This document shows, piece by piece, positions 1-24,646 of a DNA stretch of 32,379 bases (position 1 is its first letter; the number at the start of each line of letters is the position of its first letter). The stretch is taken from NCBI GenBank assembly GCA_021774775.1, contig JAJFIT010000251.1, positions 1-32,379 of the forward strand. Reading direction: 5' to 3'. Origin of the DNA: Alphaproteobacteria bacterium. GTDB taxonomy: Bacteria; Pseudomonadota; Alphaproteobacteria; Sphingomonadales; Kordiimonadaceae. The translations under genes were made by a program, and so were the position numbers. The notes below the pieces were generated by a model, which worked only from the letters and a program-made list of their open reading frames with translations, made no database searches and was not told the DNA's origin.

Positions 1-2843
1 CGGGCCAATACCGGTGCCAGATACTGTCCAGTATAGCTGGCTGCGCACTGGGCGACATCTTCCGGTGTGCCCACTGCGATAATCTCACCGCCGCCGTCGC
101 CGCCTTCGGGACCAAGGTCGAGTATCCAGTCAGCGGTTTTAATCACTTCCAGATTATGCTCGATCACGACAACGGTGTTGCCTTGCTCCACCAGCGCCTG
201 CAGCACTTCCATCAGTTTGCGGATGTCTTCAAAATGCAGGCCGGTGGTGGGTTCGTCCAGTATATAGAGGGTTTTTCCGGTAGACCGTTTGGACAGTTCC
301 TTGGCCAACTTCACCCGCTGGGCTTCGCCGCCTGAAAGCGTGGTGGCTTGCTGTCCGACCCGGATATAACCGAGGCCCACTTTCTCCAGCATTTCCAGTT
401 TGTTGCGAATGGCGGGGACGGCTTTAAAAAAGCCAACTCCCTCTTCAACTGTCATATCAAGAACATCAGATATTGATTTGTTTTTAAATAATATTTCCAA
501 TGTTTCTCTGTTATAGCGCCTACCCCTGCACTGGTCGCATTGCACATAAACGTCGGGCAGGAAATGCATCTCGATTTTGATCATGCCATCGCCGCGACAA
601 GCCTCGCAGCGTCCGCCTTTCACATTAAAGGAAAAACGACCGGGCTTATAACCACGCGCCTGCGCTTCGGGCAGGCCCGCGAACCAATCACGGATCGGGG
701 TGAAGGCATCAGTGTAGGTGGCTGGATTAGAGCGCGGCGTGCGGCCTATGGGACTTTGGTCGATGTCGACAATCTTATCGAGGTGTTCCAGCCCTTCGAT
801 GGATGTGTGCGGTCCAGGCACCATTCGGTTTTTGTTCAGGTGTTTGGCAACAGCCTTATAAAGCGTCTCGATGGTGAAGGTGGACTTGCCAGACCCCGAT
901 ACCCCGGTAATGCAGGTAAGCGTGCCCAGCGGGATGCTGCCGTCCACACCGCGCAGATTATTGGCAGTGGCGCCCTTAACGGTCAGGAACGTACCTTTTC
1001 CGGGCCTACGGCTATCGGGAGTTGGTACAGACCGAACCCCGGTCATATATTGACCGGTCAAGCTTTTGGGGTTGCGCAACACCTTTTCGGGTTTGCCCTC
1101 AGCGACAATCTTGCCGCCGTGCTCGCCAGCGCCGGGGCCCATGTCGATGACATAGTCTGCGCTACGGATGGCGTCTTCATCGTGCTCGACCACCAGTACG
1201 GTGTTGCCGATATCTCGTAGGTTTTTCAGGGTTTCCAGCAATCGCTCATTGTCGCGTTGATGCAGGCCTATGGAAGGCTCGTCCAGCACATACAAAACGC
1301 CTGTAAGGCCAGAGCCAATTTGCGAGGCTAGACGGATGCGTTGGCTTTCGCCGCCGGACAGCGTGCCTGAAGACCGGCTGAGTGTTAGATATTGCAAACC
1401 TACATTATTAAGGAAACCCAACCGATCCTGAATTTCCTTCAGCACTTTTTCAGCAATTTGCTGTTGTTTTTCAGTCAGACGCTCGGGAAGGGTTGAAAAC
1501 CACTCGTGCGCTGCAGAAACTGACATAGCGGTCACGTCACTGATGTGAGTCGCATCGATCTTCACTGCAAGTGCCTCGGGCTTTAGGCGTGCGCCCTTGC
1601 ATTTGGTGCATGTGGTGGACGATTGGTATTTGGACAGTTCGTCGCGCATCCAGTTGCTGTCGGTTTCGCGCCAGCGGCGCTCGATATTGTTAAGCACACC
1701 TTCAAACGGTTTATTGACCTCAAACCGACGCTTGCCGTCTGCATAGACGATGGTGACCGATGTTTTGCCTGTTCCATACAGGAACGCCTGTTGGGCCTGT
1801 TCGGGCAGTTCGCTCCATGGGATATCAAGCGATACACCAAAATGACCTGCAACTGCATCCAGTGCCTGAAAGTAAAAGGGCGAAGGGTTATTGGCCCGGT
1901 TCGCCCAAGGAGCCAAAGCACCAGCGCGTACGGTTTTGCTTTTGTCCGGTACCGCCAGATTCGGATCAAAATATAGTTTGTTGCCCAATCCGTCGCATTC
2001 AGGGCACGCACCAAAAGGGTTATTGAATGAAAACAGCCGCGGTTCGATTTCTTCGATGGTAAAGCCCGATACCGGACAGGCAAATTTGGCCGACATCAGG
2101 TGCCGCTCCTGCGCGGTTTCGTCTTTGGAAGCAAGCTCGTAGGCGACAAGGCCTTCGGTAAGCTCCAGCGCGGTTTCCACGCTGTCTGCCAGCCGCTGTT
2201 CCAGCCCGTTTTTGACCACCAACCGGTCAACTACCACTTCAATGTCATGCTTGTATTTTTTGTCGAGGGCTGGCACGTCTTCAATCAGGTAAAATTCGCC
2301 GTCTACTTTCACGCGCTGAAAACCACGTTTTTGCAGCTCGACGAATTCCTTGCGGTATTCGCCTTTGCGGCCGCGCACAATCGGTGCCAGCAGGTATATG
2401 CGTGCGCCTTCTTCCAGTGTCATGATGCGGTCGACCATTTGGCTAACTGTTTGGCTCTCGATCGGCAAACCGGTTGCCGGAGAGTAGGGCACACCCACAC
2501 GCGCCCACAGCAGGCGCATATAGTCATAAATTTCGGTAACAGTACCCACGGTTGAGCGGGGGTTCTTGCTGGTGGTCTTCTGCTCGATGGAAATGGCCGG
2601 TGACAGACCTTCAATATGGTCCACATCGGGCTTTTGCATCATTTCCAGAAACTGCCGGGCGTATGCGCTCAGGCTTTCCACATAGCGGCGCTGACCCTCG
2701 GCATATATGGTATCAAACGCAAGCGAAGACTTGCCCGAACCGGACAGCCCGGTGATAACAACCAGCTTGTCGCGCGGAATATCAACATTGACCGATTTTA
2801 GGTTATGTTCACGCGCGCCGCGCACTGAAATTTCTGTAAGCAT
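1..2843 (-). CDS. uvrA: UvrA, excinuclease ABC subunit A (3' end cut by window edge)
   Basis: DNA-damage recognition ATPase of nucleotide excision repair; it loads UvrB at lesions in the cytoplasm. The track misses it because the frame stays open to base 1. Translation from the ATG at 2843 begins [18 protein letters not shown] and gives 947 codons, so only the extreme C-terminus is missing. Visible are two ABC ATPase halves: Walker [10 protein letters not shown] near residue 35, GVSGSGKST in the second half, and signatures [16 protein letters not shown] and [16 protein letters not shown], each followed by a DEP Walker B. The second zinc module (CEACRGDG ... CDQCRGR) is intact, but the first reads CPVSG where E. 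coli has CxxC, so one cysteine is Ser. An ATG at 2847 is out of frame. A GAAC-N7-GAAC SOS box lies about 110 bp upstream, consistent with LexA control. Identification is certain. Confidence 0.98.
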
Positions 2844-2924
2844 ACATATGTCTCGTTAGGGCCAGTATCGTAGCAAGGTTTGTGACCAATTTTCATGATA
2901 TGAATTGGGCCGTAATGTTGCTGG

Positions 2925-2941
2925 TGTCAAGCGGCTTGACA
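2925..2941. promoter_or_regulatory. 17-nt palindrome carrying two divergent TTGACA hexamers
   Basis: TGTCAAGCGGCTTGACA is a perfect inverted repeat with 8-bp arms and one central base, in the uvrA/GGCT-like intergenic region. Each arm contains TTGACA reading outward, so it can supply a -35 element in both directions. Rightward, a 17-bp spacer puts the -10 position (2959-2964, ACAAAT, weak match) inside the SOS box. Leftward, the -10 candidates are poor. It could instead be a separate operator. The palindrome is seen directly; promoter function is inferred. Confidence 0.5.
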
Positions 2942-2956
2942 ATAACCTTGAGAAAA

Positions 2957-2971
2957 GAACAAATAAAGAAC
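2957..2971. promoter_or_regulatory. LexA/SOS box GAAC-N7-GAAC between uvrA and the GGCT-like gene
   Basis: GAACAAATAAAGAAC matches perfectly the direct-repeat LexA operator known from alphaproteobacteria (GAAC-N7-GAAC, i.e. GTTC-N7-GTTC on the other strand). It ends 35 bp before the GGCT-like start and sits 113 bp upstream of uvrA. It overlaps the expected -10 position of a rightward promoter with TTGACA at 2936-2941. uvrA is a classic SOS target, and control of the rightward gene is also likely from the geometry. Confidence 0.8.
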
Positions 2972-3006
2972 AATCCGATCACTACTGACAAAAATGGAGA
3001 CATCTG

Positions 3007-3414
3007 ATGAAAGTTTTTTTTTACGGTCTTTTTATGGATGTTGATTTGCTTGCAAAACAAGGGGTTGTTTCTGAAAGTATTAGCACAGGGTGGGTCAATG
3101 ATTTTGCCTTGCGTATTAGCAAGCGGGCCACATTGATGCGTAAAGCTGGAGATCAGGCTTATGGTGTATTAATGGATATTTCTTCCAGTGAGTTGGAGGC
3201 CTTATATGCCGAAGACAGTGTTGCAGATTATGTTCCTGAAACATTGATGGTAAATACCCAGGATGGCACTAAAATTGAGGCGGTCTGCTATAATTTACCG
3301 CAAGAAAAAATTGTAGGTGAAAATAAAGAGTATGCCCAACTGTTGTTGGCGTTGGCATTGAAATTGGGCTTCCCAGACTCGTACACAGTGCAAATTTTGC
3401 GGGCCACTCAATAA
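3007..3414 (+). CDS. Gamma-glutamylcyclotransferase-like (GGCT/AIG2 fold) protein
   Basis: A 135-aa protein opening MKVFFYGLFMDVDLL, which resembles the FFYGTLM substrate-loop signature of the GGCT/AIG2 superfamily, with a later YAEDSVADYVPETL segment where the family carries its acidic catalytic region. Known members cyclise gamma-glutamyl peptides or amines with release of 5-oxoproline; the substrate here cannot be read from sequence. The usual YGT/YGS is YGL, so activity is uncertain. By hand count G+C is about 41%, well below most of the surrounding sequence, suggesting acquisition. It lies divergent from uvrA with an SOS box 35 bp upstream, and convergent with the next gene. The start is the first ATG in frame; the Shine-Dalgarno is weak (GGAGACATCTG). 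Confidence 0.7.
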   Translation: MKVFFYGLFMDVDLLAKQGVVSESISTGWVNDFALRISKRATLMRKAGDQAYGVLMDISSSELEALYAEDSVADYVPETLMVNTQDGTKIEAVCYNLPQEKIVGENKEYAQLLLALALKLGFPDSYTVQILRATQ

Positions 3415-3473
3415 CGATTATTTACAAGAGGCAAATGCGCTTTCGATGGTCCGGACTCCGTCGACCGCAGGGG

Positions 3474-3500
3474 CAGCACAGTCTTTGGTAGACTGCGCTG
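3474..3500. terminator. Strong stem-loop between convergent genes, possible terminator
   Basis: CAGCACAGTCT and AGACTGCGCTG pair as an 11-bp stem with one A/C mismatch around a TTGGT loop. It lies 60 bp after the GGCT-like stop and 34 bp before the end of the convergent secreted-protein gene. No clear U-run follows on either strand, so rho-independent termination is not proven. The rest of 3415-3533 shows nothing else I recognise. Confidence 0.35.
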
Positions 3501-3533
3501 TTCTTGTGTATATTGGGTTATGCGTAATTTTGG

Positions 3534-4094
3534 CTATTCTGGCGTATAACGAACATATTTGCCGTCGAACCACACGGCCCACTCTTTTGTTTCTGCATTA
3601 TATTGTTCAAAAAACTGACGCACGCTGCCATCCGGCTGAGGTGTCCAGGTGCCTTTGAACGGAACCGAGTTTTTCTGGGCGTAATAATAGATGGTTCCTT
3701 CAAGCACCATTGCGCCGTTTTTCAGGCCGCCGACAATATCAATTGAATAGCCACCAGCGACCCAAAGTTGCCGCCATTTGCCGGTGTTGGGATTGTAATA
3801 ATTAAGGCTGCGGCCAGTTCCGCCCGATGAATTGGTCCAGCGTTCTTCCAGCGCGCATCCGCCTTCAACCGCCGAAATTTTATTGTGCCCGCCAATGGCG
3901 CCGCCGCCCGGCCAGGTAGACACCTCCCAATCACCGACCCAAAAATCGAACGCCCGAAAATTGTCATCAAGTGTGCAAGGCGGGGGTGGAGGTGTTGCCG
4001 GGGCTGTAGGCGTGGCAGCTTGTCTGGCGTTCGCTGACGCCGCGAACATGCCAGCAAGTGCAATGACAGCAAAAGTTGCTTTAATAGATTTCAT
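3534..4094 (-). CDS. Secreted lipocalin-like hypothetical protein (DUF1579-like)
   Basis: A 186-aa protein. The N-terminus MKSIKATFAVIALAGMFAASANA is a clear Sec signal peptide, followed by an Ala/Pro/Thr linker (about residues 24-40) and a compact domain containing FDFWVGDWEV, GGCALEERW, YYNPNTGKWRQLWV and FKGTW. This pattern of FW.GDWEV, beta-strand repeats and tryptophans resembles DUF1579-type lipocalin-fold proteins whose ligand is unknown. I chose the ATG at 4094 over the upstream start in the track because GAGGGGAAAG lies just before it and the signal peptide starts there. It is convergent with the GGCT-like gene. The function is unknown; a periplasmic location is inferred. Confidence 0.75.
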   Translation of the reverse strand: MKSIKATFAVIALAGMFAASANARQAATPTAPATPPPPPCTLDDNFRAFDFWVGDWEVSTWPGGGAIGGHNKISAVEGGCALEERWTNSSGGTGRSLNYYNPNTGKWRQLWVAGGYSIDIVGGLKNGAMVLEGTIYYYAQKNSVPFKGTWTPQPDGSVRQFFEQYNAETKEWAVWFDGKYVRYTPE

Positions 4095-4224: not shown

Positions 4225-4239
4225 GAACAAAAATAGAAC
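4225..4239. promoter_or_regulatory. LexA/SOS box GAAC-N7-GAAC upstream of ssb
   Basis: GAACAAAAATAGAAC is a second perfect alphaproteobacterial LexA operator, 122 bp upstream of the ssb ATG. A TTGACC at 4213-4218 could be a -35 element just upstream, although no good -10 is evident. Two such boxes within 1.3 kb, both beside DNA-repair genes, make chance occurrence unlikely. Confidence 0.8.
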
Positions 4240-4361
4240 AAAATTCCTCAATAACCTTTTGCAAGGGTGGGGGTTTGTGGTCTATGTTCCCTCCGGTATG
4301 GAGGCAGCGGAGCGGTTCGTTTCACGCTGTACCCTCAGAATATTTCAACAAGGGGGCCCTG

Positions 4362-4862
4362 ATGGCTGGAAGTGTAAATAAAGTAATTTTGGTTGGTAAT
4401 CTGGGCCGTGACCCTGAAGTGCGTTCGATGCAGGACGGTTCCCCAGTGGTAAACCTGTCGGTCGCGACGTCTGAAAACTGGCGCGACAAAAACACCGGTG
4501 AACGCCGCGAAAAAACCGAGTGGCACCGTGTTGTCATTTTTAATGAAAACCTGGCTAAGGTTGCGCAGAGTTATCTGAAGAAGGGCTCCAAAGTTTATGT
4601 TGAAGGCCAGCTTCAAACCCGCAAGTGGACCGACCAGTCTGGCACCGAGAAATATTCAACCGAAGTGGTTTTGCAGCGCTTCCGCGGCGAACTGACCATG
4701 CTGGATAGTCGTAACGACGGGGCAGGTGGTGGCTTTAGCGACAACCAGTCAAGCTACGGCGGCGGCCAGTCTCAAGATGGACAACAGGGTGGCGGTCAAT
4801 CCCAAGGTGGAAACGCACCTGCTGGCGGAGCAGCCGATCTGGATGACGAAATTCCGTTTTAA
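4362..4862 (+). CDS. ssb: Single-stranded DNA-binding protein SSB
   Basis: A 166-aa protein that coats and protects ssDNA during replication, recombination and repair as a homotetramer. Residues 1 to about 110 are the OB fold ([44 protein letters not shown]). Residues about 120-158 are a disordered Gly/Gln/Ser linker, and the C-terminus is DLDDEIPF, the acidic tail that recruits partner proteins. The track ORF starts at 4194, but the true start is the ATG at 4362, preceded by AAGGGGG and matching the conserved MAGSVNKV; the extra 56 residues are not SSB-like and overlap the SOS box. In many alphaproteobacteria ssb is directly divergent from uvrA; here two genes lie between them. Confidence 0.98.
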
Positions 4863-20840: not shown

Positions 20841-23800
20841 CTAGCTGCAACCGCTAGTGGAGCCACAGGTGTTGCATTTCATACATGTACCATTACGCAC
20901 CAATGTAAAATTGCCGCATTCTCCGCATGCGTCACCTTCATAACCCTTCATCCGTGCCGTTGTTCTGGCATCTGGCGTTGCGTCAGTGGCACCGTTTGTT
21001 ATGGCTGATCCCATAGTCATCGTTGCCGCCGATGCGCTTACTGCTGCCACTGAAACCGTTTCTAATTTGGTGTCTTTGTCTGTGTTGCGCGCAGTGTTGA
21101 GCACAACAAGATTGCTACCTCTGACATATCCAGCTGAGGCAAACTTCTGAACCCTTTCAAGGGCTTCAGACACATCATCACTTAAAGGCGGCAGTCCATC
21201 GTTTTTGTCGCCGCGCCCCGTAGTGTCGGGCATCAAATCGGCTGGCGTTGCGTGAGCAAGGTCTTCACGGCCAAGGTAGGAAATGGCCAATTCGCGGAAA
21301 ATATAATCCAACAGCGATGTTGCCATTTTGATGGTGTCATTGCCTTCAACACGTCCAAACGGTTCGAAACGTGTAAAAGTAAAGGCGTCGACAAACTCTT
21401 CCAATGGCACGCCGTATTGCAGGCCGATGGAAATGGCAATGGCAAAATTATTCATCAGGGAACGGAAGGCTGCGCCTTCCTTGTGCATGTCGATGAATAT
21501 TTCTCCGACAGAACCATCGTCATACTCGCCGGTGCGCAAATATACTTTGTGGCCGCCCACAATGGCCTTTTGCGTATAACCTTTGCGGCGTTCGGGCAGC
21601 CGATTGCGTTTTGTTGCGTCGCGTTCAATCTCGACAATACGCTCTACAATGCGTTCCGCGACAATTTCGGTTTTTTCTGGCAGGCTCTTGGCTTCAAGTT
21701 CGTCTTCCAGATCGTCCGCATCGAGCAGTGATGCATTCAGCGGCTGACTGAGCTTGGAGCCGTCCCGATAAAGCGCATTGGCTTTCAGCGCCAGCGACCA
21801 ACTCAATTCGTAAGCGGTCATGCACTCATCAACTTCAGCCGAGTTTGGCATGTTGATTGTTTTGGAAATCGCGCCGGAAATAAACGGCTGTGCGGCTGCC
21901 ATCATGCGGATATGGCTTTCCCACGACAACGAACGCTTGCCAATTTTTCCGCATGGGTTAGCGCAGTCAAATACATTGTAATGGGCTTCGCTCAGGTATG
22001 GGGCCATCTCCAAGGTCATGGCACCGCAGCAATATACATTGGCAGCGTCTACGTCTGCTTTGGCAAAACCAATGGCTTCCAACAGGTTGAAGCTATAGTC
22101 GCTCATCTGTTCGTCAGTTACGCCGAGGGTATTTTTACAGAAGTCAGTACCGAGCGTGAAATGGTTAAAAACAAATTTAATGTCGAAAGCATTTTCCAAC
22201 TGCCCTTCGATCAAATCGATTTCGCGGTCCGTAAATCCTTTTTCCTTTAGGCTGGCGTGGTTGATGCCGGGAGCATCTCTAAGTGTAGAATTTCCAACAG
22301 CGTATTTTTCGATCTCGTTAATTTGCTTGGCACTATAGCCAAGGACCTTAAGCGCTTGGGGTACAACGCGGTTGATGATTTTGAAGTAGCCACCACCCGC
22401 AAGTTTCTTGAATTTTACCAGCGCAAAGTCAGGCTCAATACCGGTTGTATCGCAGTCCATGACCAGGCCGATAGTACCGGTTGGTGCGATAACTGAGGAC
22501 TGTGCGTTGCGGTAGCCGTGCTTTTCACCAACTTCCAGCGCGCGGTCCCATGCATCTGCCGCTGCAATTGTAATCAGCTGGTCCGGGCAATTGGAAATGT
22601 CCAGGGCAACCGGGTTTGTGTTTAGTTTTTCGTAGCCATCCTTCTGGCCGTAGGCGGCGCGGCGGTGATTGCGAATAACCCGCAACATGTGGCCTTTGTT
22701 TTTACTGTAACCTGGGAAAGCGCCCAGTTCAGACGCCATTTCGGCACTTGTAGCGTACGATTCGCCGGTCATAAGTGCCGTGATGGCACCGCAAAGTGCG
22801 CGGCCTTCGTCGCTATCGTAGGCGATGCCGTTGCTCATCAACAGTCCGCCAATGTTGGCATAGCCAATGCCAAGTGTGCGGTATTCGTAGGAAAGCTGGG
22901 CAATTTCCTTCGATGGAAACTGTGCCATCAAAACAGATATTTCCAGCACCATCGTCCAAAGCCGAACGCCGTGCTTGAAGTTTTCTACCGCAAAGGTGCC
23001 GTCCTGGTTGCGAAATGTCATCAGGTTCAGCGACGCTAAATTGCAGGCAGTATCATCAAGGAACATATATTCCGAACAAGGGTTGGACGCCTTGATTTCG
23101 CCTGCCGCCGGGCAGGTGTGCCAGTCATTAATAGTGGTGTGAAATTGAATACCAGGGTCGGCGCAGGCCCACGCGGCTTGTCCGACATCGCGCCACAGGT
23201 CTTTGGCACTAATTTCGCGGGCGATGGAACCATCTGTGCGGCTCTTGAGCGACCAATTGCCGTCACCTTTAATCGCACGCATAAAATCGTCGGACACGCG
23301 AATTGAATTGTTGGAGTTTTGGCCGGAAACCGTCAAATACGCGTCCGAATCCCAGTCAGTATTGTATGTTTTGAAGTCAATTGACGCGTAGCCCTGCTTG
23401 GCAAACTGGATCACACGCTGGATATAATTCTCGGAAATCATCACCTTTCTGGCAGCAATGACCTGTTTCTTCAGCTCTTTGTTGGCTTTAGGCTCAAAGG
23501 CAGATTCGGCGAGGTCTTCTTTGGCGTCATGACAGGCCTTCATAATTCGGTTGAGGTGGATTTCATTGAGCTTGGATCCTGAGACAAGGGCAGACACTTT
23601 CTGCTCCTCGATAACTTTCCAATTGATAAATTCTTCAATGTCGGGATGGTCGATGTCTACTACGACCATTTTTGCCGCACGGCGTGTGGTGCCACCAGAT
23701 TTTATCGCTCCGGCAGCACGGTCGCCGATTTTCAGGAAACTCATCAAGCCAGACGACTGACCGCCTCCGGATAAACTTTCACCTGAGCCGCGCACATTGG

Positions 23801-24506
23801 AAAAATTTGTGCCGGTGCCTGAACCATATTTGAACAAGCGTGCCTCGCGGGTCCACAGGTCCATGATGCCGCCCTCATTCACGAGATCATCGGACACGGA
23901 CTGAATAAAACAGGCGTGAGGCTGTGGGTGCTCGTAACTGCTTTTGGACCGGGTCAATTTCCCGGATTTAAAGTCAACATAGTGGTGTCCCTGAGCCGGA
24001 CCATCAATGCCGTATGCCCAATGAAGGCCAGTGTTGAACCACTGTGGGCTGTTTGGAGCAGCCATTTGTGTGGCCAGCATGAAACGCATTTCGTCGTAAA
24101 ATGTGCGGGCGTCTTCTTCGCTATCGAAATAGCCGCCTTTCCAGCCCCAATATGTCCAGGTACCGGCTAGTCGGTCAAAAACCTGTTTGCTGCTTTTCTC
24201 ACTACCGAAATGATTTTCCCTGGGAACGCCAGCTAGCGCTTTTTTATCGATTTCCTGGCGCCATAACCAACTGGGCACATCTTTTTCTTTTACTGGCTTA
24301 AGGGCCTGCGGCACGCCAGCCTTGCGGAAATATTTCTGCGCAATAATGTCGGTTGCAACCTGGCTCCAGCTTGCGGGAACTTCAACAGCATCCATATGAA
24401 AAACAATCGATCCGTCAGGATTGCGGATTTCGCTTACAGCAGTGTGCCATTTAATAGCGGCATATGGACACGGATGTTCTTTGGTAAACCGACGCTCTAG
24501 ACGCAT
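20841..24506 (-). CDS. nrdJ: Class II (B12-dependent) ribonucleoside-diphosphate reductase
   Basis: A 1221-aa enzyme that converts ribonucleotides to deoxyribonucleotides with adenosylcobalamin, independent of oxygen. Landmarks: [13 protein letters not shown] (redox Cys), NPCSEYMF with the thiyl-radical C477, then [11 protein letters not shown] with the second redox Cys, [20 protein letters not shown] in the barrel, and a C-terminal zinc-ribbon-like CGECGNF...[13 protein letters not shown] carrying the shuttle cysteines. The length matches alphaproteobacterial NrdJ, and there is no intein. I chose the ATG at 24506 ([12 protein letters not shown]) over the track's 24527, because AAGGGGGAAAG precedes it and homologues start there. 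A terminator follows, and a candidate NrdR box lies upstream. No other RNR gene is present in the window. Confidence 0.97.
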
Positions 24507-24646
24507 TCTTTCCCCCTTGAAAGACACATAACTGTTGTTGAGCAGCGTGTTTTCTACACTGTCTGCCGATTATTTACTGTGCAGATAAGCCCTAATATCC
24601 GCCCGATACTTGCTTTGGGGACGACCCCAGCCTGACCTGCATCACC

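What the first reader, a model, noticed from the sequence alone, without database searches (positions are those of the whole stretch)
2957..3414. GGCT-like gene with a perfect SOS box over its promoter region
The GAAC-N7-GAAC box lies 35 bp before the GGCT-like gene, and with TTGACA at 2936 it covers the expected -10 position, the standard LexA repression geometry. GGCT/AIG2-fold proteins are not, to my knowledge, established SOS members. It suggests a damage-induced gamma-glutamyl or glutathione function; alternatively the box serves uvrA only.
Basis: partly seen in the sequence, partly recalled or inferred. Interest (0 to 1): 0.6.

Follow-up and report, generated by a model that had tools for sequence, protein, structure and literature searches.

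The report
GGCT-like gene under uvrA's SOS promoter
In this marine bacterium (genus Kordiimonas) one DNA-damage switch sits between the repair gene uvrA and a small gene facing the other way, and comparison with relatives shows that the small gene recently replaced an unrelated gene while keeping its damage-controlled promoter.

Summary
GAACAAATAAAGAAC (2957-2971) is an alphaproteobacterial LexA box, 35 bp before a real GGCT-fold gene (3007-3414). The genome is a Kordiimonas MAG. The box was not acquired with the GGCT gene: it belongs to the uvrA intergenic region, and is there in 28 of 29 family genomes read, mostly as the identical 15-mer. It does not serve uvrA only. It lies between two face-to-face promoters, TTGACA-N15-box towards GGCT and TTGTCA-N14-box towards uvrA. 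In most relatives the divergent slot holds a GFA-family gene. Where GFA is farther from uvrA (5 genomes) or unlinked (1), it has its own box, so GFA looks like an undescribed, lineage-specific SOS gene. Here GFA was replaced by GGCT. Homology to the sister genome runs through promoter and box and stops about 6 bp before the start codon, so the newcomer took over a ready-made SOS promoter. GGCT relatives elsewhere (80 loci, plus 23 copies in related genomes) never adjoin uvrA and have no credible box. SOS control of GGCT is well supported by anatomy but untested. A glutathione-enzyme function is weakly supported, because the catalytic Glu column is not conserved.

The parts
3..2843 (-). uvrA (947 aa in the window, start codon at 2843-2841, cut by the window edge)
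   Evidence: Pfam UvrA_inter 1.3e-40, UvrA_DNA-bind 6e-38
2936..2941 (+). TTGACA, -35 element of the promoter towards the GGCT gene, 15 bp before the box
   Evidence: Read. TTGAC at 13-17 bp before the box in 18 of 21 GFA-serving boxes against 3 of 12 boxes that serve uvrA only
2957..2971 (.). LexA box GAACAAATAAAGAAC (GTTCTTTATTTGTTC on the uvrA strand)
2986..2991 (-). TTGTCA on the uvrA strand, probable -35 of uvrA, 14 bp from the box
   Evidence: same place in G013, G014, G018, G006, G015 and G002
2996..2999 (+). GGAG, ribosome-binding site inherited from the GFA leader
   Evidence: sister genome G014 has TATGGAGAAG at the same place
3001..3536 (.). replaced segment: no homology to the sister genome; flanks 2841-3000 and from 3537 on are homologous
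   Evidence: blastn, (79.5% over 161 columns, then 85.4% over 797)
3007..3414 (+). GGCT/AIG2-fold gene, 135 aa
   Evidence: Pfam, profile against PDB, AlphaFold model pLDDT 93 and Foldseek
3534..4094 (-). secreted-type protein of unknown family, kept between uvrA and ssb in many family genomes
   Evidence: 92% identical in G014
4225..4239 (.). separate LexA box of ssb, GAACAAAAATAGAAC
4356..4862 (+). ssb
   Evidence: Pfam SSB 2e-38

Best explanation
One LexA box lies between two overlapping, face-to-face promoters. LexA bound there blocks the -10 region of both uvrA (minus strand) and the divergent gene (plus strand). DNA damage activates RecA, LexA cleaves itself, and both genes are transcribed. 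In the family Kordiimonadaceae the divergent gene is ancestrally a small zinc-binding GFA-family gene. On the branch to this genome the GFA coding sequence was replaced by a horizontally acquired GGCT-fold gene that kept the GFA promoter, LexA box and ribosome-binding site, so the GGCT gene is now an SOS gene by promoter capture. Shown here: anatomy, conservation, the swap and its borders. Inferred: LexA binding, induction, horizontal origin and any benefit. What the protein does is open; a gamma-glutamyl-type cyclotransfer is the first guess.
For: Box and TTGACA in register. Identical box at uvrA across the family. GFA in the slot in most relatives, including the sister genome G014 (100/100 support). 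GFA with its own TTGAC-N14/15-box in G010, G001, G007, G009 and G005, and unlinked from uvrA with TTGACA and box in G027. Three GFA copies outside this clade, in G017, G005 and G014, have no box. Homology to G014 runs through promoter, box and SD and stops about 6 bp before the GGCT ATG. Boxes also at lexA and the alkylation-repair gene, a near-match (one mismatch) at recA. GGCT gene G+C at third positions 0.40 against 0.51-0.60 for its neighbours.
Against: No binding or expression data. The GGCT-box pair is seen in one MAG only. G014, which has GFA, has lost the TTGACA, and two other GFA genomes (G002, G019) lack it, so the -35 is not required everywhere. The -10 hexamer under the box is weak (ACAAAT). 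The TTGAC statistic (p = 0.0009) ignores shared ancestry.
Confidence: 0.75

Rival explanations
1. The box serves uvrA only; the GGCT gene merely landed beside it and is expressed weakly or from another promoter.
For: The box is conserved in genomes with no gene in the slot (G013, G003, G028, G026, G023). GGCT relatives elsewhere have no box. LexA control of uvrA is part of the conserved SOS core (PMC3323433).
Against: A second promoter with the box over its -10 faces the GGCT gene. The same promoter serves GFA in relatives, and GFA carries its own box when away from uvrA. No other promoter can lie between box and ATG in 35 bp without overlapping the box.
Confidence: 0.17
2. The GGCT gene in the slot is an assembly error of the MAG and the real genome has GFA there.
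For: G000 is a MAG of 259 contigs, 84% complete.
Against: Both flanks belong to the same locus in register, the junction is inside a promoter leader, and the orthologous GFA is found nowhere else in G000 (best 2.8e-14, a distant paralogue). A chimera would have to swap one gene exactly.
Confidence: 0.05
3. The GGCT protein is not an enzyme but a non-catalytic GGCT-fold binding protein.
For: The column of human GGCT Glu98 (position 70 here, Asp) is E in only 9 of 43 subfamily members and otherwise S, D, K, P, Q, A, T and others.
Against: The neighbouring position 69 is acidic in 36 of 43, and the YG motif and Tyr67, Tyr75, Tyr109 are invariant, so the active site may be shifted by one residue.
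Confidence: 0.35

Closest known systems
uvrA-ssb divergent pair of E. coli and Vibrionaceae sharing one LexA site (PMC3323433)
   Same: uvrA with a divergent gene, one LexA box between them, both under SOS control; separate boxes kept when the pair is split.
   Different: The partner is GFA (relatives) or GGCT (here), not ssb; ssb lies 1.5 kb away with its own box; the box is the alpha-type direct repeat; the partner was exchanged for an unrelated gene.
SOS regulon of Caulobacter, GTTC-N7-GTTC LexA box (PMC12700426)
   Same: Same motif, uvrA a member.
   Different: A word search of that paper for GFA and glutathione found nothing.
Human gamma-glutamyl cyclotransferase GGCT (PDB 3cry, 2pn7), B. 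subtilis YkqA (2qik)
   Same: Fold (TM-score 0.76 and 0.80 on the query) and YG motif.
   Different: About 20% identity; catalytic Glu column not conserved in this subfamily.
GFA / glutathione-dependent formaldehyde-activating family (PF04828)
   Same: The displaced gene of relatives is a member (7e-23).
   Different: Not homologous to GGCT; far below the cut-off of the formaldehyde-activating equivalog model (17 against 234.55 bits), so its enzyme name is not supported.

Membership tests
SOS (LexA) regulon, alphaproteobacterial type | GTTC-N7-GTTC box | tested here: met
   2957-2971, no mismatch
SOS (LexA) regulon, alphaproteobacterial type | box overlaps the core promoter of the gene | tested here: met
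   TTGACA-N15-box, 35 bp before ATG
SOS (LexA) regulon, alphaproteobacterial type | organism has lexA of the right kind and other box-bearing SOS genes | tested here: met
   lexA with TTGACT-N14-box, ssb, alkylation-repair gene; recA one mismatch
SOS (LexA) regulon, alphaproteobacterial type | box conserved with this gene (GGCT) | tested here: not met
   No GGCT relative elsewhere has a credible box; the box is conserved with uvrA and GFA
SOS (LexA) regulon, alphaproteobacterial type | box conserved with the slot's ancestral gene (GFA), also away from uvrA | tested here: met
   6 genomes with a dedicated GFA box
SOS (LexA) regulon, alphaproteobacterial type | LexA binding and induction by DNA damage | not testable with these tools
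   Needs EMSA/ChIP and RNA-seq
GGCT/AIG2 fold superfamily | fold | tested here: met
   Pfam over cut-off; model pLDDT 93, Foldseek to GGCT 1.5e-8
GGCT/AIG2 fold superfamily | catalytic glutamate (human GGCT Glu98, GGACT Glu82) | tested here: inconclusive
   Aligned column holds Asp70 here and is variable; neighbour Glu69 acidic in 36 of 43

The most novel reading that the evidence does not exclude
The uvrA SOS promoter of Kordiimonadaceae is a cargo slot: a bidirectional LexA promoter whose second gene (GFA, here GGCT) belongs to a lineage-specific, damage-induced small-molecule or thiol-adduct defence coupled to nucleotide excision repair, and unrelated proteins of like purpose replace each other in it.
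Probability: 0.25. Interest if true: 0.65.

Novelty: new variant of a known kind. Interest (0 to 1): 0.48.

Why it matters
It gives a clean case of how a gene joins the SOS regulon: not by evolving a box, but by landing behind an existing damage-controlled promoter. It also points to a GFA-family gene as an SOS member of one bacterial family, not found in the papers searched. If GGCT and GFA do related jobs, they would tie thiol or aldehyde chemistry to DNA repair.

Tried and rejected
Bare GTTC-N7-GTTC counts as evidence: rejected, equal to the reversed control genome-wide. GGCT as a conserved SOS gene: rejected; 80 loci from other genomes and the 23 copies in related genomes show no uvrA neighbour, and one isolated motif match at L133 (a gammaproteobacterial MAG, GC-rich spacer) is taken as chance. 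385 genomes sampled from the class gave 3 further GGCT relatives besides the window's own; their flanks were not examined. Same class searched for the SOS-type GFA: none at 1e-25, so it looks restricted to the family; that search had no positive control inside it, but the same query found 21 of 30 family genomes. The third box-like match (23821-23835) lies inside the ORF 20841-24527 and is taken as chance. Defence-system models: no match. Literature searches on GFA with LexA/SOS, gamma-glutamyl genes with the SOS regulon, and Kordiimonas with LexA returned no paper; only open-licence papers are held.

Full report
Observation. The box GAACAAATAAAGAAC is at 2957-2971. TTGACA at 2936-2941 lies 15 bp before it; the GGCT ATG at 3007 lies 35 bp after it, with GGAG at 2996-2999. 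The ORF is a real GGCT-fold protein: Pfam AIG2_2 and GGACT over cut-off, a profile of 49 relatives hits human GGCT at 8e-10, and an AlphaFold model (pLDDT 93.4) matches GGCT at 1.5e-8, TM 0.76.

Is the box more than chance? The bare motif is not: 86 matches in the genome and 86 for the reversed control. Three of the 86 have a spacer of A/T only (my reading of that list): the one here, that of ssb (4225-4239), and one in front of a HEAT/DNA-alkylation-repair gene (L085). Conservation is decisive. In the family, 27 of 28 genomes, and G019, have a box 90-180 bp before uvrA; the exact 15-mer is in 18 of the 27. In G027 the box before uvrA lies 684 bp away, beyond an inserted gene. lexA of this genome (Pfam LexA_DNA_bind 5e-14) has TTGACT-N14-GAACTAAAAGAGAAC, the same layout as the GGCT promoter. 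recA has a one-mismatch box, GAACAAAATGTGTAC.

What sits opposite uvrA. In 21 of 30 family genomes a distinct GFA-family gene is present at E below 1e-30, and in 20 of them it lies upstream of uvrA on the other strand. In 15 the two genes share one box. In five (G010, G001, G007, G009, G005) there are two boxes, one by each gene, the GFA one preceded by TTGAC at 14-15 bp; in G005 GFA has moved about 0.9 kb away and keeps a box. In G027 GFA is on another contig and still has TTGACA and GAACAAATAAAGAAC in front. More distant GFA copies of the same organisms (L127, L128, L129) have no box. TTGAC at 13-17 bp occurs in 18 of 21 GFA-serving boxes and 3 of 12 uvrA-only boxes (Fisher p = 0.0009, not corrected for ancestry, counted by hand). 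GFA is thus very likely an SOS gene of this family, and the box works in both directions. On the uvrA strand a TTGTCA lies 14 bp from the box here and in five other genomes listed (G013, G014, G018, G006, G015) and G002.

The swap. In a uvrA tree the sister of this genome is G014 (100/100), which has GFA. Alignment of the two shows homology over 2841-3000, that is promoter, box and ribosome-binding site, then none over about 3001-3536, then homology again from 3537, the end of the neighbouring gene. The GGCT gene therefore replaced GFA and begins about 6 bp after the old leader ends. Its third-position G+C is 0.40 against 0.51-0.60 in its neighbours, in keeping with recent arrival. GGCT relatives in 80 loci of other genomes are not beside uvrA and have no credible box, and neither are the copies in related genomes (its printed output was cut, so not every locus was seen in full, though and one search place uvrA and GGCT on different stretches in those genomes).

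Function. Human GGCT Glu98 aligns with Asp70; that column is variable in the subfamily (E 9, S 7, D 6, K 5, P 5 and others of 43), while position 69 is acidic in 36 of 43 and Y6, G7, D11, Y67, Y75 and Y109 are invariant. An enzyme with a shifted acid or a non-catalytic binder are both open. The displaced GFA protein is far below the formaldehyde-activating equivalog cut-off, so its name is no guide to function either. That both carry glutathione-related family names is suggestive only.

Comparison. A uvrA gene sharing a LexA site with a divergent partner is known: uvrA-ssb in E. coli and Vibrionaceae, with separate sites kept after insertions (PMC3323433). The GTTC-N7-GTTC box is the known alphaproteobacterial one (PMC12700426). 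What appears new is the partner (GFA), and its replacement by GGCT behind the same promoter.

Noticed in passing
G014 (L027), upstream of GFA: In the sister genome a short ORF (MITCRDCGFIRFLTPLTAAEVHNGRNE, CxxC) sits between the SOS leader and GFA and overlaps the GFA start; the same site that was exchanged in the window's genome.
   Followed up: partly
L085 (G000:C236:7544-10544), gene 365-1486 on the minus strand: HEAT/DNA-alkylation-repair-like gene with a box identical to that of ssb, 14 bp before its start: another probable SOS gene.
   Followed up: partly
L087 (G000:C215), from 1521: S24 peptidase (no LexA DNA-binding domain found) directly after GAACAAAACAGGAAC; possibly a second LexA-like regulator under SOS control.
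   Followed up: partly
window 3534-4094 and relatives: Secreted-type protein with no Pfam family, kept between uvrA and ssb in many family genomes; in G027 it lies between a box and uvrA, as if in one SOS operon with it.
   Followed up: partly
L002 (G053:C69): A 54% identical GGCT relative lies just downstream of an Ada-like DNA-repair gene on the same strand (Ada named from its sequence by eye, not tested).
   Followed up: no
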